A stretch of 64,000 bases of DNA from an endosymbiont 'TC1' of Trimyema compressum. Its GTDB lineage: Bacteria; Bacillota; TC1. The notes beneath the pieces were generated by a model, which ran no database searches, was not told the origin of the DNA, and saw only the letters and a list, made by a program, of their open reading frames with translations. Below are positions 10,562-64,000 of the stretch, one piece after another; positions within the stretch are counted from its first letter, which is position 1; every line of letters starts with the position of its first letter. The stretch covers positions 1,116,001 through 1,180,000 of the forward strand of contig NZ_CP014606.1 of the NCBI RefSeq assembly GCF_001584725.1, in the 5' to 3' direction. The translations under genes and the position numbers were made by a program.

Positions 10562-10707
10562 CTAAAATATTTCTTCATATTTTTTTGCATTAAAACCAAA
10601 AGCAACATGACCTGTATTACTAACTGCAATAGGTCTATATAAATACTTATAGCTTTTTGTTATTGCTTATATAGCTTCTTCATCAGTCATAGTTTCAATA
10701 TTCAAAC
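10562..10707 (-). pseudogene. ArsC/Spx-family protein, 3' fragment cut by the IS
   Basis: Only the last 48 codons remain: an acidic helix ETMTDEEAI, an in-frame TAA, then YKYLYRPIAVSNTGHVAFGF and the C-terminal KKYEEIF. This resembles the RPI-x(n)-GF-x(n)-EY tail of ArsC-like thioredoxin-fold proteins. The rest is absent beyond the IS end at 10708. The assignment rests on a short tail only. Confidence 0.55.
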
Positions 10708-10785
10708 TGGACATATACTAAAAAAGTAGACAGGAAAAAGTGAAACATGTTTTAAATAAGTAGACACATAAGAAAGGATAAAATT

Positions 10786-11067
10786 ATGAATAATTACAAG
10801 AAATACGATGAAGAATTTAAAAAAAGTATTGTTAATTTACACCAAAACGGTAAAACTCAATCCCAACTTTCTAAAGAATATGGTGTCTCCATGTCTGCTT
10901 TACACAAGTGGATTAAACTTTATTCTCAGGTTAGAATTGATGATGATACTATTCTAACCGCTAAGCAGATTAAGGATCTTCAAAAGCGTAATGCTCGACT
11001 CTAGGAGGAAAATATCATTTTAAAAAAAGCAATTGCCATATTCACGCCTCACTCAGACAAAGATTAA
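10786..11067 (+). pseudogene. IS3 transposase OrfA with internal TAG (copy 1)
   Basis: OrfA binds the IS ends. MNNYKKYDEEFKKSIVNLHQ and the helix-turn-helix (TQSQLSKEYGVSMSALHKWI) are intact. The leucine-zipper region DLQKRNARL is cut by TAG at 11002, and the same frame continues EENIILKKAIAIFTPH to TAA at 11065. The family has Glu, Arg or Gln at the stop position, so one substitution explains it. GAAAGGA precedes the ATG at a normal distance. Confidence 0.9.
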
Positions 11068-11935
11068 TGGCTGTTCATACCCTTCGTTTTCAGCACGCTA
11101 TCTCTTTTCTTTGTCATGTCCTTAAAGTGAACCGCAGCTCCTATTACAAATACTTTTCGGAAAAACTTTCTCCTAGAACTATTGAGAATTAAAAACTCCG
11201 TCAGCTTATTCTCGGAGATTTGTCATCTTACTAAGAGACGTATTGGCCCATCTAAGATTAAGGCTCTTCTTTCCTATGACTATGGCATCAACATCAGTAT
11301 TGGTAGAGCGAGCCGCCTGATGACTGACATGAATCTTCCTAAAATGCCTACTATCAAACTTCGGTTTATTCATCCGAGGTCTATTCCCAATTTTGATTGC
11401 CCTAACTACCTAAATCAAAATTTTAATGTTCCTCAGCCCAATCAAGTCTGGGCTAGTGACATTACCTATATTAATTTAAATGCCTCTTTTGCTTATCTCT
11501 GTGTTATTATGGATTTATTTTCTCGTAAAATTATTGCTTGGAAGCTCTCTCTTAAAATTGATACTTCTCTTGTTAAGGATACTTTTATCAAAGCCTTTTA
11601 TTCTCAAAAACCTTCTACTTCTCTTATTTTTCATTCTGACAGAGGTTCCTAATATACTTCTTTTATCTTTAGAAAGCTCCTTGATTCTTTTGGTATCATT
11701 CAATCTTTTTCTAAGCTTTCTCATCCTTGGGACAATGCTGTCGTTGAGTCCTTTTTAAATATATGAAAAAAGAAGAAATTCTTCGTAGGTCTTTTTCTTC
11801 CTTTGCTCAAATTAAGCTTTCCTGCTTTGAACACATTGAGGGCTTCTACAACCCCCTATACGTCCCCACTCTGCTAATAACATTCTTTCTCCTAATTCCA
11901 AAGAAGACTATTTTTTCACTTCTATTAAAACTTAA
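11067..11935 (+). pseudogene. IS3 transposase OrfB (DDE integrase), several lesions (copy 1)
   Basis: The IS150-like catalytic subunit starts at ATG 11067, overlapping the orfA TAA. Landmarks are HAISFLCHVLKVNRSSYYKY, RRIGPSKIKALLSYDYGI, QVWASDITYI (first Asp), IFHSDRGS (second Asp) and HPWDNAVVESFL (Glu). Lesions are TAA at 11190, a frameshift near 11211, TAA at 11650 where the family has Gln in HSDRGSQYTS, a frameshift at about 11760 and another in the C-run near 11850. It cannot make an active protein as read. Confidence 0.92.
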
Positions 11936-11972
11936 TTTCACTTTTTCTATCTACTCTATTGACATTCTTCCA

Positions 11973-20248: not shown

Positions 20249-20363
20249 TTTGATTCCTTATACTATCTCGGATTTCTCTCAATCTTGGACATATACTAAA
20301 AAAGTAGACAGGAAAAAGTGAAACATGTTTTAAATAAGTAGACACATAAGAAAGGATAAAATT

Positions 20364-20645
20364 ATGAATAATTACAAGAAATACGATGAAGAATTTAAAA
20401 AAAGTATTGTTAATTTACACCAAAACGGTAAAACTCAATCCCAACTTTCTAAAGAATATGGTGTCTCCATGTCTGCTTTACACAAGTGGATTAAACTTTA
20501 TTCTCAGGTTAGAATTGATGATGATACTATTCTAACCGCTAAGCAGATTAAGGATCTTCAAAAGCGTAATGCTCGACTCTAGGAGGAAAATATCATTTTA
20601 AAAAAAGCAATTGCCATATTCACGCCTCACTCAGACAAAGATTAA
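20364..20645 (+). pseudogene. IS3 transposase OrfA with internal TAG (copy 2)
   Basis: Identical to the copy 1 orfA, including TAG after NARL at 20580. Confidence 0.9.
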
Positions 20646-21513
20646 TGGCTGTTCATACCCTTCGTTTTCAGCACGCTATCTCTTTTCTTTGTCATGTCCT
20701 TAAAGTGAACCGCAGCTCCTATTACAAATACTTTTCGGAAAAACTTTCTCCTAGAACTATTGAGAATTAAAAACTCCGTCAGCTTATTCTCGGAGATTTG
20801 TCATCTTACTAAGAGACGTATTGGCCCATCTAAGATTAAGGCTCTTCTTTCCTATGACTATGGCATCAACATCAGTATTGGTAGAGCGAGCCGCCTGATG
20901 ACTGACATGAATCTTCCTAAAATGCCTACTATCAAACTTCGGTTTATTCATCCGAGGTCTATTCCCAATTTTGATTGCCCTAACTACCTAAATCAAAATT
21001 TTAATGTTCCTCAGCCCAATCAAGTCTGGGCTAGTGACATTACCTATATTAATTTAAATGCCTCTTTTGCTTATCTCTGTGTTATTATGGATTTATTTTC
21101 TCGTAAAATTATTGCTTGGAAGCTCTCTCTTAAAATTGATACTTCTCTTGTTAAGGATACTTTTATCAAAGCCTTTTATTCTCAAAAACCTTCTACTTCT
21201 CTTATTTTTCATTCTGACAGAGGTTCCTAATATACTTCTTTTATCTTTAGAAAGCTCCTTGATTCTTTTGGTATCATTCAATCTTTTTCTAAGCTTTCTC
21301 ATCCTTGGGACAATGCTGTCGTTGAGTCCTTTTTAAATATATGAAAAAAGAAGAAATTCTTCGTAGGTCTTTTTCTTCCTTTGCTCAAATTAAGCTTTCC
21401 TGCTTTGAACACATTGAGGGCTTCTACAACCCCCTATACGTCCCCACTCTGCTAATAACATTCTTTCTCCTAATTCCAAAGAAGACTATTTTTTCACTTC
21501 TATTAAAACTTAA
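20645..21513 (+). pseudogene. IS3 transposase OrfB, several lesions (copy 2)
   Basis: Identical to the copy 1 orfB: stops at 20768 and 21228 (the latter in the HSDRGSQ motif) and the same three frameshifts. Confidence 0.9.
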
Positions 21514-21550
21514 TTTCACTTTTTCTATCTACTCTATTGACATTCTTCCA

Positions 21551-21925
21551 AGCTAATGTATATGTTATGTCAATTTTTTCCCATACCGCATACAAAGTAA
21601 CATCACTTGTTCCCATTGTAAATAGTGCTTCATCAGTATACTCTATATTTCCATCTTCTTGTGTTGACCAACCTATAAAAGTATTTTCATCACTTAAAAA
21701 TTCATTTTTTGGTAAATTTTGACTTTCTCTTTCAATAAGGGTAATAAGGTTCATTATTCCTTGTCCTGATGTTCCATTAAAGCTTACTGTATGCTTATTT
21801 TGTTGCCATTGGGCATATAAGGTTGTATCATAACCTAGCATTGTTGTTTTATTAAAATCCCACTGTAATCCACACTGCCATCTGCTTCTGTATTCCATCC
21901 ACAAGATTCTGTAAACCATATGCCA
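21551..21925 (-). pseudogene. InlB B-repeat (Flg_new) surface protein fragment
   Basis: Two incomplete copies of the Listeria-Bacteroides repeat are readable: GYDTTLYAQWQQNKHTVSFN, and NTFIGWSTQEDGNIEYTDEA followed by DVTLYAVWEKIDITYTLAW. An upstream piece (SCGWNTEADGSVDY) is in another frame. These repeats occur in long secreted or wall-anchored adhesins. Everything after ITYTLAW is replaced by the IS, and the signal peptide and wall anchor are missing. Confidence 0.75.
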
Positions 21926-54605: not shown

Positions 54606-55616
54606 TTACTTAAAATTCCTTTTCTTCCTTATTATTATGATATATACTAAAAATAAACTTATAATTATAAGTAAACCAATAATTACATATCCAACAGATG
54701 AATTCTCTTTCACTCCTTCTGTATTTTTAATATTCTCTGAAGTAATAGAATTAACAGTAAATGCAAGTTCCTTTTCCCATTTTTTAGATCCACATTCAGC
54801 TATAACATAAAGTGTATACATACCCGGCTCTATAGTTTCTTCGTTCCAATATATAGGCAAATCAACATTACTATTAGGTGCCATTTCTAAATCATCTTTT
54901 TGATATTCTTGAATAATCTGAGAAAAATTTTCCTTGCGAAATTCAGCCTTAATACTCATGTTACTAATTAATGTAGCTCTTGTATTCTGAACGTTAATCG
55001 TAACAACAGGTTTTCTCAAAAACTGATTTGCTACTGCATTACTTATTTCCAATTCTGGTTCAGGAATATTTCCATTTACAAGTTTAACACCTTTAATAAA
55101 AGCATAAGAATTGAAAACTTGATTTGTATTAAAATCTTCTAATGCACTTTCCTTCTCACCAATTTGCATTCCCCCAAGTATTACACCTTCAGCTACATTA
55201 TTTGGCACTGTCAGCTTAGCTTTTAATATATAATCTTCATTTGCAGGTATTTCTATTTCATTTGATTCAAATACTAAAATATCTGATAGCGAGCATTTTG
55301 TGTACTATCTTTTTTACAATCTGACATAGAATAATCAACAACACCATTCATTGTAGTCCATGCATCAGTAACATGACACTCCAAATAAATAGTTTTATTC
55401 GTTTTATTGTGAATTTTTAATTCTAGCGTTTGCTCGAAATTAGGTGAAATATTTAAATCAAAATATGAAACCTTAGAATTTCTTTGATTGCTTGGTAATA
55501 CTGCTTCCACAAAAATGCAGTTTCGTCACCTTTAACATCACTAGAAATAGTTATTGTCATTATTCCAAATATACACAAAATCAAACTTAAATAGATTATT
55601 ATCTTCTTCGTCAAAC
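54606..55616 (-). pseudogene. DUF916/DUF3324 WxL-cluster membrane protein, broken
   Basis: Found beside WxL surface proteins and thought to help present them on the wall. The start (TKKIIIYLSLILCIFGIMTI) is a signal segment, probably from a TTG or GTG near 55616. The DUF916 domain is split (VLPSNQRNSKVSYFDLNISP; EIEIPANEDYILKAKLTVPN). DUF3324 continues GGMQIGEKESALEDFNTNQV, NVDLPIYWNEETIEPGMYTL to a C-terminal helix SSVGYVIIGLLIIISLFLVY and a basic tail (RKKRN). At least three frames. Confidence 0.78.
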
Positions 55617-55650
55617 TCTCCACAATAACCTTTCACTAAAAATAAAGAAA

Positions 55651-56273
55651 TTATTCATTAATCGGAATATCATTTAAAGTCCAAATGATTTTAGTTTGAT
55701 AAGCTCCCATAACAGCTTCACCTGGATTCACGTTTAAACTAATATTACTACCATTCCAAATTGTTGACCAACCAAGTAATCCCTCCTTAGTTTTTGCTGC
55801 AGCTTTTTGCACAACTGTTGGAAATGACTTTCCATTTAAATCAACAGCATCTACATAAAGAGAGTCGCTAACACCTGGTTTTTTGCATTAGGAACATTAT
55901 TTTTTACTGGATTTGCATTAGGATTAGCTATTTTAATATTATTACCACTTAAAGCAATACCTTCTTTTGTTCTCATTTTTTCAGCTTGAACTGTTACATT
56001 GTACCCACTATCCGTTCCCCTATTATCAGTAACAATCATTTGATATGTATCATTTTCGCCTAAGGGAATTATATCAGGATATAATGTCAATGGTATCGGT
56101 TTAAAAGAAAAAATTTTAGGAACTGAATCCAACGTTAACTTATCAGGTTGAAATTCAGCATTTACAGTCGTTTCCCCAATACCAGCTATTCCTGCTCTCA
56201 ACGGTGTCCCTAGCATTCCCAATTCAAATACAAAACCTAACAATAAAATAATAATTATCTTTTTCTTCATCAT
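55651..56273 (-). pseudogene. WxL-domain surface protein, frameshifted
   Basis: The signal peptide (MKKKIIIILLLGFVFELGML) precedes TTVNAEFQPDKLTLDSVPKI, IPLGENDTYQMIVTDNRGTD and VTVQAEKMRTKEGIALSGNN. After a frameshift near 55860 come VQKAAAKTKEGLLGWSTIWN and the C-terminal WxL block VMGAYQTKIIWTLNDIPINE. WxL domains bind peptidoglycan non-covalently. About 200 residues with one indel. Confidence 0.75.
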
Positions 56274-57143: not shown

Positions 57144-57948
57144 TTAAAAATCGAAATTATCTGGATCAGGCCCAAAACGATGATTGTCGTTTAAAGTAGC
57201 AATTCTCTTCATATCAGCTTCTTCAATCTGGAAATCAAAGATCTCTAAATTCTCAATTAAGCGACTTTCATGAACCGTTTTCGGAACGGGGATAACGCCC
57301 ATTTGATGAGCCCAACGCAAAAGAATTTGAGAAATGCAACGCTTATACTTTTCACCTATTTCCTGAAATAAAGGAATTTCAAATCCATGACCCTGCATGA
57401 GTGGCGCCCAACCAGTTAAAATAATATCTTCATTATTACAAAAATTTAGTAATTCTTTTTGAACTAGTCGAGGATGAAATTCTATTTGATTAACCATTGG
57501 CATAATTTTAGCTGTTTTCATTAACTCATGCAAATGATGAACCTAAAAATTAGCTACGCCAATAGCCTTAACAAGACCTTCGCTGTAGAGCTTTTCTAAG
57601 GCTTTCCATGTGTCACTACTATGAGGTTTTGGCCAATGTACTAAATATAAATCTACATAATTAAAATTTAACTTTTTTAACGATGTTTCGAAAGCTTTAA
57701 GTGTCTTATCATAACCCTGATCATCATTCCACACTTTTGTAGTTAAAAATATCTCTTCTCTAGCTATACTACATTCATTAATACCCGCTCCAACTTCAGC
57801 TTCATTAAAATAAAATGCTGCTGTGTCAATATAACGATAACCTAATTCTATAGCATCTCTAACTATCCGAGTAGTATCATCACAGTTTTTCCATATTCCT
57901 AAGCCAATTGAGGGCATTTTTGCCATTTTTTAATGTCATGAATTCCAT
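57144..57948 (-). pseudogene. Aldo/keto reductase with in-frame TAG and start frameshift
   Basis: An NADPH-dependent carbonyl reductase. MEFMTLKNG (57948) is shifted relative to MPSIGLGIWKNCDDTTRIVR. Catalytic residues are Asp and Tyr in YRYIDTAAFYFNEAEVGAG, Lys in EEIFLTTKVWN and His in YVDLYLVHWPK. A TAG at 57543 follows GLVKAIGVANF, and the same frame continues VHHLHELMKTAKIMPMVNQI to PVPKTVHESRLIENL and 57144. The family often has Gln or Asn there. Two small lesions separate it from a normal protein of about 270 residues. Confidence 0.88.
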
Positions 57949-58845: not shown

Positions 58846-59240
58846 TTATCTTGCTGTATGTATAACAAGGTAACATTCTGCTAAAATAAATCCATCAGTT
58901 AACAAATTGTCATTAAACTCTTTAAATGATTTTTTCGTAACAAAATATCTATCATATTCTATATTGTTTTTAGAAATTCTTTCTTTTTTGCTACGTATTT
59001 TTCTATATCTATATTGCTTTTGGTAAATGCTTTTACCTCAACTAGGCATTTGCCTAGTCTCATTATTGATAAAAATCAAATTGGCTTTTTTCCTGAATGA
59101 CTTTTTCATTAAAATAATAATATCATCTGGAATCACTCCAAAACTTCGAGCAGTATTAGACATTCCATTCATTTCAAGATAACCTATTGCTAATTTATGA
59201 AATATCGGAATACTAATTAAATTAAACTAAAATAAAAATT
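58846..59240 (-). pseudogene. Unknown small protein remnant between RHS gene and att relic
   Basis: FNLISIPIFHKLAIGYLEMN, GMSNTARSFGVIPDDIIILM, then in another frame LSIMRLGKCLVEVKAFTKSN, IDIEKYVAKKKEFLK, then YDRYFVTKKSFKEFNDNLLT, DGFILAECYLVIHTAR. About 120 residues, alpha/beta, with two or more shifts. No family recognised. Its place after an RHS gene fits a former immunity gene, which is a guess. Confidence 0.4.
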
Positions 59241-59313
59241 AATATTTAAATTCCTGCAATTGCCTTCACGGGAAAACTCCTCTTATGATTAGCCTTTACC
59301 AATCCTTTCTTAC

Positions 59314-59560
59314 TTATATATTATAAACTTCAATTTTTAAACTATCCTTTTTATCGTAAAAAAAATCAATTACAGTACCATTGCCATAGGTTGAAGATAG
59401 CATATTATGATAAACAGAATCATAAATGTTTCTTGAAATACTTTTACCATTTATATTTGAAGCAATTTTTCTTCCCCAGTTATTTTATTCAAAAGTATAG
59501 CTGATCCAAAGCCGTCAACTACAGCTTTTAGTAAATATATATATTGATTGAGAATTGTAC
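59314..59560 (-). pseudogene. Unknown small protein remnant
   Basis: LLKAVVDGFGSAILLNKITG and, in another frame, GRKIASNINGKSISRNIYDS, VYHNMLSSTYGNGTVIDFFY, DKKDSLKIEVYNI. About 80 residues, with no family I recognise. Confidence 0.35.
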
Positions 59561-59606
59561 TTTTAATCTTTTAAGTAGAATTCTATTCACTTCTAATAAA
59601 TTTGTT

Positions 59607-60041
59607 TCATTCTAGATACTCCCAAGCACTCAAGATAACATAATATGGAAAAATAATTAAAATACTAGCAATGAAACCTAATACTATTTTAAATACAAAT
59701 GTTAGCACTGAACCTAAAATAATAGATAAACATGTTGGAAGGATAATTAACAAGATAAAAAGAAGCATGTCTACTATTATGATAGCATAGACTTTTTGTA
59801 ATGTTATTTTTAGAGATTTTCTATAGTTGGCCTTATTGAAAACAAACATAAATCCAAGTGAAAATACAATTGGGAAAATTAATAATACGAATAATAGTAA
59901 AAACAACATTACAGCGTAATAATAAAATAATGGATAACCTGATCTGACTGTCAAAGGGATAATCATAGTTATATTTACAAAAAGCGATGCGAAAATAATA
60001 CATATTGTAATGCAAAATATATATATGATACTTTTTATCAA
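59607..60041 (-). CDS. Polytopic membrane protein, unknown
   Basis: The 144 residues have four hydrophobic helices (IIYIFCITICIIFASLFVNI, YYYAVMLFLLLFVLLIFPIV, YAIIIVDMLLFILLIILPTC, FKIVLGFIASILIIFPYYVI). The first codon would be TTG and I see no ribosome site, so it may be the frame-shifted second part of the gene at 60051-60266. It lies two genes downstream of an RHS C-terminus, a usual place for immunity genes. Confidence 0.5.
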   Translation of the reverse strand: MIKSIIYIFCITICIIFASLFVNITMIIPLTVRSGYPLFYYYAVMLFLLLFVLLIFPIVFSLGFMFVFNKANYRKSLKITLQKVYAIIIVDMLLFILLIILPTCLSIILGSVLTFVFKIVLGFIASILIIFPYYVILSAWEYLE

Positions 60042-60050
60042 AACAAATTT

Positions 60051-60266
60051 TCAATTGAGATGGTATTTTTTATTCAAATACCTTTTTAATATGAAAGAAA
60101 AAACAGTTATTGCAAAAATTAAAAGAACAGCTATTAACCAGTTATTTACTTCATTATAGTATAAAAACGAATATAAACGGCTAATTAGAATAACTAGCAT
60201 ATTGAAAATAAATGAAATTAAAATTATTTTTCTATTATCATTTAAAAATCCAAAATATTTTTTCAT
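60051..60266 (-). CDS. Small membrane protein, unknown
   Basis: AAGGAGG lies seven bases upstream of the ATG. The 71 residues have two helices (IILISFIFNMLVILISRLY and WLIAVLLIFAITVFSFILKR) and a basic tail (NKKYHLN). It may continue into the 59607 frame. First gene downstream of the RHS C-terminus. The gap 60267-60645 between them holds only a weak inverted repeat (AATCAATCCTAT/ATAGGATTGG at about 60345-60392). Confidence 0.5.
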   Translation of the reverse strand: MKKYFGFLNDNRKIILISFIFNMLVILISRLYSFLYYNEVNNWLIAVLLIFAITVFSFILKRYLNKKYHLN

Positions 60267-60645
60267 TTTTTCTCCTCCTTAATAATCAGAATTTTTATAA
60301 CAATGTATCTTTGTTTAGCCAATTTGAATATAGAATAGAAAGGAATCAATCCTATTAAATAAAACATACTAAAACAAGAACTTATAGGATTGGTTTTCAA
60401 CTCACTAAAGAGTCAACGATAATATAATTACTAGAAATTAGTACGCCTTAAAATCTTACAGATAACTGTAATTACAATTGTTAAAGAGTTTGATAGAATT
60501 CTCTTTTCACTTCTTAAAATTAAAACAATTGTCTATACAATTCCATAAGTAATTATCAATCATTAAGCTAACTACCAATACGTTTAAAAACTAGCATTAT
60601 TTCTCTTGTTAGTAAATTATTCTTATGATTCCAACATAAGAAATT

Positions 60646-61914
60646 TTACCAATCTTTTTTTATTCCAAAATAATAAGTATCTTTTGTGCCATATCCATCG
60701 TCCCCAAAAAAGCCAAAAGCAAATGGATCATCTGAAGGTCCAGTAAGATTACCTTTTCCATCAATCGTCCAATATTTTGCTTCTGCAACACTAGATTCTA
60801 AATTTACTGTTAAATTCCCAGCACCACTTTTACTATACCAAATACCGTCAATTTGGACAATAAAATGATATCTATGCTCATTTCTTTTTGCAATAACTTT
60901 ATTATATAAACTAGAATCAAGTTTTTCAACTTTGCCAAATCATCTTGAAGCGAAATATTCGAACTACCAATATCATCTTCTATAGAATTAATGAAACTCT
61001 TACCAGTTTTATTAAGATCATATCTAGTTTGTCTACCAGTAGCTGTACCATAGCAGTCAAAACTAATAGGGTCATAAGTTGTTCCACTTGTTCTTACATC
61101 AATTTTATTTGATACACTAGCAGGTTTTTGATATTCATTTGGTGGTAACTTCCATATGCTCAACCACCACTTCTCAATCATTTGGCCTAACCAATTAAAA
61201 AACTTACCCTCACGATCAATATTATTAATAGGATTATTACCACAATAGGCAAACATATTAGAATCGAATGCACCTTCGCCAGTATTTACATAAACATCTC
61301 CATTAATAAATCTACCTATTTCAGGATTATAATACCTTTGTTGTAAATAATAATATCCGGATTCCTCATCATAAAAATAAGAGCGATATCTAAGTGGGTT
61401 CTCAATCCCAATAGTATCTTTTAATTCCCCGCTAATTTCCTTTATATTCCCCCAACTATCATAGACATAAGATACTACTTCTTTTCCATTATTGTCAAGA
61501 ATACCTTCTACATCATTCTGAGCATTTAACTTGTAATGATAGGTATCACCATCTTTCACCATAGAAATTAGATCTCCTGTATAGCCTCTATTAAAGATTA
61601 TTATTGAATTATTAGTTTTTTGTCCAACAACTTCTCCATTTGAAGTTGCATATTCCGTAACTTCAGAATCAACTTTTTTGCTTGTTCTAATTCCATCTGC
61701 ATCATAATTGTATACTGTCGATTGATTATCCTGCTTAAAAGAAGCTAGGCGTCTTCCTTGTTTCCGAATATGTTCTTTGTTACCAAAAACTAAAACATTG
61801 CCAATTTCATCATAAGTTAATGTTTCTCCATCATACTTAACTAACAAATCCTTCCATTTATCATCATACACATATTCTTTTTCCGTTAATGATTCCCTAT
61901 CTTTAATTGATTTT
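60646..61914 (-). pseudogene. RHS/YD-repeat protein, C-terminal part with possible toxin domain
   Basis: YD-repeat core pieces are DGETLTYDEIGNVLVFGN, STVYNYDADGIRTSKKVDSE and NDVEGILDNNGKEVVSYVYD. The RHS core end follows: YYLQQRYYNPEIGRFINGDV, FAYCGNNPINNIDREGKF. Beyond lies a unique C-terminal region (GRQTRYDLNKTGKSFINSIE), a one-base shift near 60945, and LYNKVIAKRNEHRYHFIVQI, DGIWYSKSGAGNLTVNLESS to FGIKKDW at 60646. The 5' end is cut exactly at the IS. Confidence 0.82.
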
Positions 61915-61951
61915 TGGAAGAATGTCAATAGAGTAGATAGAAAAAGTGAAA

Positions 61952-62820
61952 TTAAGTTTTAATAGAAGTGAAAAAATAGTCTTCTTTGGAATTAGGAGAA
62001 AGAATGTTATTAGCAGAGTGGGGACGTATAGGGGGTTGTAGAAGCCCTCAATGTGTTCAAAGCAGGAAAGCTTAATTTGAGCAAAGGAAGAAAAAGACCT
62101 ACGAAGAATTTCTTCTTTTTTCATATATTTAAAAAGGACTCAACGACAGCATTGTCCCAAGGATGAGAAAGCTTAGAAAAAGATTGAATGATACCAAAAG
62201 AATCAAGGAGCTTTCTAAAGATAAAAGAAGTATATTAGGAACCTCTGTCAGAATGAAAAATAAGAGAAGTAGAAGGTTTTTGAGAATAAAAGGCTTTGAT
62301 AAAAGTATCCTTAACAAGAGAAGTATCAATTTTAAGAGAGAGCTTCCAAGCAATAATTTTACGAGAAAATAAATCCATAATAACACAGAGATAAGCAAAA
62401 GAGGCATTTAAATTAATATAGGTAATGTCACTAGCCCAGACTTGATTGGGCTGAGGAACATTAAAATTTTGATTTAGGTAGTTAGGGCAATCAAAATTGG
62501 GAATAGACCTCGGATGAATAAACCGAAGTTTGATAGTAGGCATTTTAGGAAGATTCATGTCAGTCATCAGGCGGCTCGCTCTACCAATACTGATGTTGAT
62601 GCCATAGTCATAGGAAAGAAGAGCCTTAATCTTAGATGGGCCAATACGTCTCTTAGTAAGATGACAAATCTCCGAGAATAAGCTGACGGAGTTTTTAATT
62701 CTCAATAGTTCTAGGAGAAAGTTTTTCCGAAAAGTATTTGTAATAGGAGCTGCGGTTCACTTTAAGGACATGACAAAGAAAAGAGATAGCGTGCTGAAAA
62801 CGAAGGGTATGAACAGCCAT
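61952..62820 (-). pseudogene. IS3 transposase OrfB, several lesions (copy 3)
   Basis: Same translated segments and same stops and frameshifts as copies 1 and 2, including the stop in HSDRGSQ at 62235. Confidence 0.9.
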
Positions 62821-63101
62821 TAATCTTTGTCTGAGTGAGGCGTGAATATGGCAATTGCTTTTTTTAAAATGATATTTTCCTCCTAGAGTCGAGCATTACG
62901 CTTTTGAAGATCCTTAATCTGCTTAGCGGTTAGAATAGTATCATCATCAATTCTAACCTGAGAATAAAGTTTAATCCACTTGTGTAAAGCAGACATGGAG
63001 ACACCATATTCTTTAGAAAGTTGGGATTGAGTTTTACCGTTTTGGTGTAAATTAACAATACTTTTTTTAAATTCTTCATCGTATTTCTTGTAATTATTCA
63101 T
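62820..63101 (-). pseudogene. IS3 transposase OrfA with internal TAG (copy 3)
   Basis: Same as copies 1 and 2, with TAG after NARL at 62883. Confidence 0.9.
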
Positions 63102-63179
63102 AATTTTATCCTTTCTTATGTGTCTACTTATTTAAAACATGTTTCACTTTTTCCTGTCTACTTTTTTAGTATATGTCCA

Positions 63180-64000
63180 GTTAGTAATGCTTAGTAATGC
63201 TGGTACTTCGGCTTCTATTTTTTGATCAGACTCCGTTTCATGATTCTCTAAAATATCTGAACTGGTAAAACCAGGCTCAAACAATCTAAAACTAAAACCA
63301 AATTTTCCATCCTTAACTTTAAGTAACTTTTCATCACTGGCATTTTTGGCAAAGGAAACATTTAAGGCATTTTCTGTGTTCTTTAATACACCTTCCTTAA
63401 TTTCCCCGTCTGTACCATCTATTAAGTTGTTGTTAATCTCCTTCATTACAGGCTTATTTTCAGTAGATTCATAATCTTTTGCTACATAATCATCGGGTAA
63501 TGGCACAGACTCTGGATGGATTTCAAGAGCTGGTTTATCATCTGGAATAGCATCTTTTGCTTCCTCAGGTATATTGAATTCAGCTAATTTTTTTATTTCA
63601 TTTTCAGTTTCGAGAGCGGTAGCCCTAGCTAAAGGATCTTTAGCTCCTTCTTCCTCATTTTTATTCGCATCATAATGGACAGCATAAGGATAGATTTCAG
63701 CCACAAGGGTACCATCATCTTTCCTAAAATGCTTAACAGAGGTTTCTCTTAAATCTTCTACTTCTTCAATAATTGGAGATTCTTTCTCCATGGAATCAGC
63801 AACAATTTCCTCTCCCTCTAAACTATTCATATCTGTCATTTCAGAAGTTGGTGGTGCTTCTTCTGTCATCTCTAAAGGTGCTGTTTCTGGTACATCATTT
63901 AAACCAACAGCTTCTGTTGCTTTAATATAGCGATCGATAGGCAAAGGAATTATACTTGAATTAAATATTAAACTAAACATAATAACAAAGGACAGACATA
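63180..64000 (-). pseudogene. RHS/wall-associated protein, N-terminal part
   Basis: A signal-like stretch (SFVIMFSLIFNSSIIPLP) starts near the window edge; the true start may lie beyond it. An acidic spacer follows, then EDLRETSVKHFRKDDGTLVA, EIYPYAVHYDANKNEEEGAK, and NALNVSFAKNASDEKLLKVK, FGFSFRLFEPGFTSSDILEN, the N-terminal pattern of secreted RHS/WapA-like proteins. A tandem TTAGTAATGC sits at the junction. The frame ends inside the IS. The repeat-rich middle of the gene is gone. Confidence 0.72.

What the first reader, a model, noticed from the sequence alone, without database searches (positions are those of the whole stretch)
59607..60945. Unfamiliar RHS C-terminal domain with downstream small membrane genes
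After the RHS core end the sequence turns unique: an alpha/beta domain of about 100 residues with HRYHFIVQIDGIWYSKSGAG and DPFAFGFFGDDGYG. I do not know this toxin fold. Next in line are one or two small membrane proteins with no known family and a good ribosome site, in the usual position of immunity genes.
Basis: inference. Interest (0 to 1): 0.6.

Follow-up and report, generated by a model that had tools for sequence, protein, structure and literature searches.

The report
Decayed RHS papain-like toxin gene
The odd end of this RHS gene is a diverged, now broken copy of a papain-like (cysteine protease-like) domain that, in many gut and soil bacteria, ends secreted toxin-type proteins and often has a predicted enzyme-inhibitor lipoprotein encoded right next to it; the small membrane genes here are orphans whose immunity role is unproven.

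Summary
It lies on the minus strand. An IS element (61915-63182, present three times in the window) cuts the RHS gene, and a frame break near 60930-60945 splits the unique C-terminal domain into a Cys half (FDCYGTATG) and a His half (HRYHFIVQIDGIWYSKSG).

The domain has no close relative in the collections searched. A motif search led to a large, mostly unnamed family (82 domains used in the profile): NCYxYA, then 60-100 residues, then DYH[FW]xxQxx[DS]GxWSxKxG. It recurs at RHS C-termini (L092, L035, L048 and others), in secreted proteins and in tandem genes. The only Pfam name touching it is DUF7689. AlphaFold of an RHS-linked member scores pLDDT 95.8, and its best PDB neighbours are mostly papain-like cysteine enzymes. 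Members nearest to ours usually precede one homologous lipoprotein family with a predicted BLIP/BamE-like fold, suggesting enzyme-inhibitor pairs acting outside the membrane.

Membership of the window domain is well supported but not overwhelming (least biased profile E=8e-4; Cys site in about 0.1% of shuffles). Its downstream membrane ORFs (71 and 144 aa) have no convincing relatives and are not lipoproteins. The window copy is probably dead; the family and its partners are the interesting part.

The parts
63183..64000 (-). N-terminal fragment of the RHS gene (starts beyond the window with a signal peptide), ends where the IS begins
   Evidence: 295-aa ORF, last residues read into the IS end; IS boundary
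61915..63182 (-). IS element (IS3-like transposase ORFs, frame-split) that interrupts the RHS gene; the RHS repeat middle is absent around it
   Evidence: 100% identical to 10705-11972 and 20286-21551; transposase ORFs. IS3 assignment is by inspection
61206..61463 (-). RHS repeat-associated core domain
   Evidence: TIGR03696 E=1.3e-19, residues 156-241 of ORF 61928-60810
60942..61112 (-). First half of the C-terminal domain in the RHS frame, with the putative catalytic Cys (SFDCYGTATG)
   Evidence: Cys-site score reached by 26 of 20000 shuffles
60927..60945 (-). Frame break between the Cys half and the His half (around GTTGAAAAACTTG)
60649..60927 (-). Second half of the C-terminal domain in another frame, with the putative catalytic His (HRYHFIVQIDGIWYSKSG), to the stop
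   Evidence: family HMM E=1.6e-5; less biased HMM E=8.4e-4; hhalign probability 89.5
60051..60266 (-). 71-aa ORF, about 2 predicted TM helices, AAGGAGG ribosome site; unproven immunity candidate
   Evidence: no family (8, 9, 85); no convincing relative in 349 genomes (84, 88)
59607..60041 (-). 144-aa ORF with several hydrophobic segments, TTG start, no visible ribosome site; unproven
   Evidence: no family (8, 9, 85); no relative in 349 genomes (83)

Best explanation
The unique tail is the toxin-type C-terminal domain of a secreted RHS (polymorphic toxin) protein. It is a diverged member of an unnamed papain-like cysteine-enzyme family with an N-terminal Cys at the start of a helix ([N/D]CYxYA) and a His at the start of a strand (YH[FW]xxQ...GxWxxKxG). 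In the intact relatives the domain would be carried outside the cell by the RHS or other secreted carrier and would hydrolyse or modify a protein or wall peptide on the outer face of neighbouring cells; the producer would be protected by a BLIP-like lipoprotein inhibitor encoded directly downstream. In the window the gene no longer works: an IS removed or separated the middle of RHS, and the domain is split by a frame break between Cys and His. Shown: sequence family, recurrence at RHS ends, predicted fold, neighbouring lipoprotein family, broken state. Inferred: catalysis, extracytoplasmic target, inhibition by the lipoprotein, and that the window copy once worked the same way.
For: RHS core directly before the domain. 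Family found in L006/L007 and then 102 genome stretches; RHS core by phmmer in L092 (2e-48), L035 (2.5e-29), L048 and others. In the copies not selected by the DNA pattern the His, Trp and Lys are kept. Window His half: top hit of 851 window ORFs with the family HMM (54) and with an HMM of copies not selected by the pattern (E=8.4e-4, next 0.97; 91); hhalign probability 89.5. Cys site in the expected place in the preceding frame. AlphaFold of the L092 domain pLDDT 95.8, pTM 0.89; PDB neighbours mostly papain-like enzymes: Josephin clippase, staphopain C and the staphopain-staphostatin complex, NTAQ1, USPs, C39 peptidase of PCAT1. Downstream lipoprotein family (58, 76, 80, 101) with BLIP and BamE among its best fold matches. 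Lipobox in the next gene in 9 of 14 cases in the nearest subfamily against 18 of 232 controls.
Against: An HMM from three relatives found only by tblastn does not find the window domain (E=2.8), and no close relative exists in 399 phylum genomes or in the viral, plasmid, phage and genome collections. Family members were collected with a pattern shaped on the window motif, which inflates some scores. The window has one residue fewer between Q and G than the relatives. All PDB fold matches have E above 0.001. The window has no lipoprotein gene. The third catalytic residue is not identified and the geometry of the Cys-His pair was not measured.
Confidence: 0.72

Rival explanations
1. The window domain is an unrelated RHS C-terminal toxin whose HFxxQxxGxWxxKxG stretch resembles the papain-like family by convergence or chance.
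For: No significant match with the three-sequence HMM, long insertion after the motif, no relatives found.
Against: Six spaced residues plus a Cys site at the expected distance, top score among all window ORFs with a less biased HMM (91), and the same position after an RHS core as in L092 and L035 (52).
Confidence: 0.18
2. The gene is intact in the living cell: the frame break is a sequencing error or a programmed -1 frameshift, and RHS is expressed from a start after the IS.
For: The break lies by a run of five A, and several other ORFs in this part of the window look split.
Against: GAAAAAC is not a canonical slippery heptamer; many housekeeping-type ORFs in the window are open; the IS separates signal peptide from core, so export would be lost anyway.
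Confidence: 0.12
3. The 71-aa and 144-aa membrane ORFs are the immunity proteins of this toxin, a different solution from the lipoproteins of relatives.
For: Position downstream on the same strand; good ribosome site for the 71-aa ORF (97); the other RHS gene of this genome is also followed by ORFs with hydrophobic segments (61).
Against: 380-bp gap to the domain (in relatives the next gene usually starts within 70 bp); no convincing relatives; none beside the family loci inspected.
Confidence: 0.25
4. The domain is an auto-processing peptidase of the RHS protein rather than the toxin.
For: Some papain-like domains in polymorphic toxins are thought to be releasing peptidases (PMC3482391).
Against: It is the last domain after the core, nothing follows it in L092 or L035 but a partner gene, and the same domain occurs without RHS in secreted proteins.
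Confidence: 0.1

Closest known systems
DUF7689 (Pfam PF24738)
   Same: 19 of 52 family members match at E<=0.1 (best 3.6e-6; L036 over the cut-off at 24.0 bits), over the Cys and His parts
   Different: Function unknown in Pfam; most RHS-linked members are below the cut-off and the window domain does not match; no paper found under this name
Papain-like toxin families of polymorphic toxins (Tox-PL1, PL2, PL3, C39, NlpC/P60; PMC3482391)
   Same: C-terminal position in RHS proteins, papain-like fold, Cys then His; Tox-PL1 also has an N-C Cys motif
   Different: None of their Pfam models is reported for these members. The paper gives Tox-PL1 as NC-H-DxQ, with Imm35 as partner; here YH[FW]xxQ...GxWxxKxG with BLIP-like lipoproteins
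Staphopain-staphostatin
   Same: Secreted papain-like protease with a small inhibitor encoded next door; staphopain C and the staphopain-staphostatin complex are among the PDB fold matches
   Different: No sequence relation found; staphostatin is a cytoplasmic inhibitor (from general knowledge), here lipoproteins
BLIP / BamE lipoprotein fold
   Same: Fold match of the partner lipoprotein: BLIP prob 0.99, BamE 0.99
   Different: Foldseek E-values above 1e-3 and TM-scores about 0.3; only weak below-cut-off sequence matches (DUF3862, BamE) for a few partners

Membership tests
RHS polymorphic toxin | RHS repeat-associated core followed by a variable C-terminal domain | tested here: met
   TIGR03696 E=1.3e-19, unique tail after it
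RHS polymorphic toxin | Secretion signal and full RHS repeats in one open gene | tested here: not met
   Signal peptide fragment separated by an IS, repeat middle absent
RHS polymorphic toxin | Cognate immunity gene directly downstream | tested here: inconclusive
   Orphan membrane ORFs 380 bp downstream
Unnamed NCYxYA ... YHxxxQxxxGxWxxKxG family | Conserved Cys motif near the start of the domain | tested here: met
   SFDCYGTATG, 26 of 20000 shuffles as good, though scoring below every collected member
Unnamed NCYxYA ... YHxxxQxxxGxWxxKxG family | His-Gln-Gly-Trp-Lys-Gly motif | tested here: met
   Present with one residue fewer between Q and G
Unnamed NCYxYA ... YHxxxQxxxGxWxxKxG family | Cys and His in one open frame | tested here: not met
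   Frame break between them
Papain-like cysteine peptidase fold | Helix-start Cys followed by strand-start His in an alpha+beta fold | tested here: met
   For the intact relative L092 only: AlphaFold pLDDT 95.8; H9-14 starts at C9, E93-98 contains H94; PDB matches papain-like (82). Not folded for the window domain
Papain-like cysteine peptidase fold | Catalytic activity | not testable with these tools
   Needs an enzyme assay
DUF7689 (PF24738) | Score over the Pfam cut-off | tested here: not met
   Window pieces do not match; of the members shown one by one only L036 exceeds the cut-off

The most novel reading that the evidence does not exclude
A widespread, largely unnamed papain-like toxin family (RHS ends, secreted proteins, tandem genes, a phage-encoded trypsin-like fusion) is countered by BLIP-fold surface lipoproteins, so that interbacterial cysteine enzymes would act outside the membrane against a diversifying inhibitor family; the window is a decayed, strongly diverged branch that may have used a membrane-embedded immunity protein instead.
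Probability: 0.4. Interest if true: 0.62.

Novelty: new variant of a known kind. Interest (0 to 1): 0.42.

Why it matters
It gives a testable enzyme-inhibitor hypothesis for a recurrent RHS C-terminal domain that Pfam covers only marginally as DUF7689, in gut Clostridia, Bacilli and Bacteroidales where RHS toxin targets are poorly known. The partner lipoproteins suggest that these toxins act on the outer face of the cell. For this genome it shows an RHS weapon being lost through IS expansion.

Tried and rejected
Pfam, NCBIfam and PHROGs scans of the domain halves and membrane ORFs, and PADLOC scans of the membrane ORFs and two intact relatives: nothing above cut-offs. Direct searches with the His half in viral, plasmid, phage and genome collections and 399 phylum genomes: no relative. 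PDB sequence searches: no credible hit. Weak hits L004, L005 and L021 (41, 43, 44) were treated as chance. The only hit for the 71-aa ORF (L131, E=8.5e-4) reads as an unrelated membrane protein. Post-motif tail alone gives no significant similarity. Lipoprotein relic in the 380-bp gap: none seen in three frames. Literature searches for the family or a lipoprotein-immunity papain toxin found none in the open library. The three-sequence tblastn-only HMM fails on the window and is reported as counter-evidence.

Full report
What is there. The finding lies on the minus strand. An RHS ORF (61928-60810) carries the RHS repeat-associated core (TIGR03696, E=1.3e-19, residues 156-241). After the core it continues through SNKIDVRTSGTTYDPISFDCYGTATGRQTRYDLNKTGKSFINSIEDDIGSSNISLQDDLAKL and then goes out of frame. 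DPFAFGFFGDDGYGTKDTYYFGIKKDW) is in another frame, open from 60939 to the stop at 60649. So the domain is split between its two halves, near the run of A in GTTGAAAAACTTG. I did not read the two halves as one protein; all searches used them apart.

The RHS gene is also broken upstream. A 1.27-kb IS at 61915-63182 is 100% identical to two other copies in the window. Beyond it lies the RHS N-terminus with a signal peptide (295-aa ORF in L127); the repeat middle is absent. A second RHS gene exists elsewhere in this 1.62-Mb genome with a different C-terminus. Many housekeeping-type ORFs in the window are open, which argues for real decay rather than a generally poor sequence, but a sequencing error at the A run is not excluded.

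Searching for relatives. The His half has no Pfam, NCBIfam or PHROGs match and no credible PDB-sequence match, and no relative by direct search in viral, plasmid, phage and species-genome collections or in 399 genomes of the phylum. A motif search (H[aromatic]..Q..G.W..K.G at DNA level) found two secreted proteins, L006 and L007, with NCYAYM / NCYGYA some 75-95 residues before DYHWYRQDADGGWSHKRG / DYHFMLQNSSGLWSEKHG. tblastn from L006 found further members in Rhizobium, Streptomyces and an Anaeroplasmataceae phage, without using any pattern. A pattern scan of genome contigs returned 102 stretches, nearly all encoding this family, in Clostridia, Bacilli, Bacteroidales, Rhizobiales and others.

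RHS linkage. phmmer with the window's RHS core finds an RHS core in ORFs of L092 (2e-48), L035 (2.5e-29), L048, L084, L068, L065, L123, L072 and L038, each carrying the domain motif in the same ORF. The pattern did not ask for RHS, so this is independent evidence that the domain is a recurrent RHS C-terminal domain. L056 also carries both RHS-core similarity and the motif, but mostly in separate ORFs.

Is the window domain a member? With a profile of 82 family domains the window His half is the only ORF of 851 below E=1 (1.6e-5). This is inflated, because the members were collected with a pattern shaped on the window motif. With an HMM of copies not selected by that pattern it is still the best (E=8.4e-4, next 0.97), and in those copies the His, Trp and Lys are kept. 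hhalign against the nearest subfamily gives probability 89.5. The Cys motif, in the other frame and at the expected place, scores as high in only 26 of 20000 shuffles, but lower than in any collected member. Against: a three-sequence HMM made only from tblastn-found relatives does not find it, and the tail after the motif is not significantly similar. I hold membership at about 0.8.

Fold. AlphaFold of the intact RHS-linked L092 domain with 52 aligned sequences gives pLDDT 95.8 and pTM 0.89, with the conserved Cys9 at the start of a helix and His94 at the start of a strand. Foldseek against the PDB gives weak E-values (best 6.5e-3), but many of the top matches are papain-like cysteine enzymes: Josephin clippase, staphopain C and the staphopain-staphostatin complex, NTAQ1, USPs and the C39 peptidase of PCAT1, with YopQ ranked first. 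Among predicted viral proteins two unnamed entries (F2Y2U4, M1HB16) match with probability 1.00. Pfam DUF7689 matches 19 of 52 members at E<=0.1 (best 3.6e-6), with L036 over its cut-off.

Partners. In the subfamily nearest the window the next gene, usually 8-60 bp downstream, is a lipoprotein by a simple lipobox rule in 9 of 14 cases, against 18 of 232 control gene pairs (Fisher p=8e-7). Loci from one pattern scan are not fully independent (L122 holds two similar copies, L106 and L121 are related), so the p-value is a guide only. These lipoproteins align as one family ([CR]RKxxN..Y.V....G....FF ... DF..I..G.S...V..IDP). The AlphaFold model (pLDDT 84.8, pTM 0.66) shows two helix-plus-four-strand units, and BLIP and BamE are among its best PDB matches (probability 0.99, E 2e-3 to 3e-2, TM about 0.3). 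Other members have shorter partners with a similar G.S..EV...G.P signature. This suggests enzyme plus surface inhibitor pairs; that is inference.

The window's own downstream genes differ. The 71-aa ORF has a good ribosome site and about two predicted TM helices; the 144-aa ORF has only a TTG start. Neither has a convincing relative in 349 phylum genomes, and neither type occurs beside the family loci inspected. They start 380 bp after the toxin stop, with no lipoprotein relic in between. Their role as immunity genes is possible but unsupported.

Mechanism. Most likely, intact family members are extracytoplasmic cysteine hydrolases (protease, deamidase or wall amidase) delivered by RHS or other secreted carriers and blocked in the producer by the lipoprotein. 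Shown: family, positions, predicted folds, neighbours. Inferred: catalysis, target, inhibition. In the window organism the gene is most likely a pseudogene.

Literature. The 2012 survey of polymorphic toxins lists several papain-like toxin families with other signatures and partners (PMC3482391). No open-library paper was found that names DUF7689 or describes a papain-like RHS toxin with a lipoprotein partner; subscription literature was not searched. Novelty is therefore rated as a new variant of a known kind, not a new kind.

Noticed in passing
window 10705-11972, 20286-21551, 61915-63182: Three copies of a 1.27-kb IS3-like element, 100% identical, with a frame-split transposase: recent IS expansion.
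   Followed up: partly
L126/L128 (own genome C1 about 1414600-1418000): Second RHS gene with core E=2.5e-19, a different C-terminal domain ending in FSPIIDLITGVGLGAAMKN, and ORFs with hydrophobic segments downstream.
   Followed up: no
window 57144-57926 and 54606-56273: Split ORFs resembling an aldo-keto reductase and a surface protein operon (by inspection only): further likely pseudogenes next to the RHS remnant.
   Followed up: no
window 59200-59600, minus strand: Broken coding remains (SAILLNKITGEEK ... NINGKSISRNIYDSVYHNMLSSTYGNGTVIDFFYDKKDSLKIEVYN) in shifted frames after the membrane ORFs.
   Followed up: no
L017 1219-3417 (Anaeroplasmataceae phage NatCom_34063): Phage protein with what looks like a trypsin-like N-terminal part (by inspection) and the papain-like family domain at its end, one short ORF after the holin and followed by a lipoprotein gene.
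   Followed up: partly
L036, L028, L054, L062, L109: Tandem genes (two to four copies) of the same papain-like domain as stand-alone proteins without an obvious signal peptide in gut Bacilli and Clostridia.
   Followed up: no
L015, L016, L059, L061, L087: Proteobacterial, actinobacterial and acidobacterial members carry a [DI]FSGRPNPTW[EK]L-type domain either fused at the N-terminus or as the next gene; it may be another partner type.
   Followed up: no
BFVD entries F2Y2U4 and M1HB16: Two viral proteins share the predicted fold with probability 1.00 and about 21% identity; their origin was not looked up.
   Followed up: no
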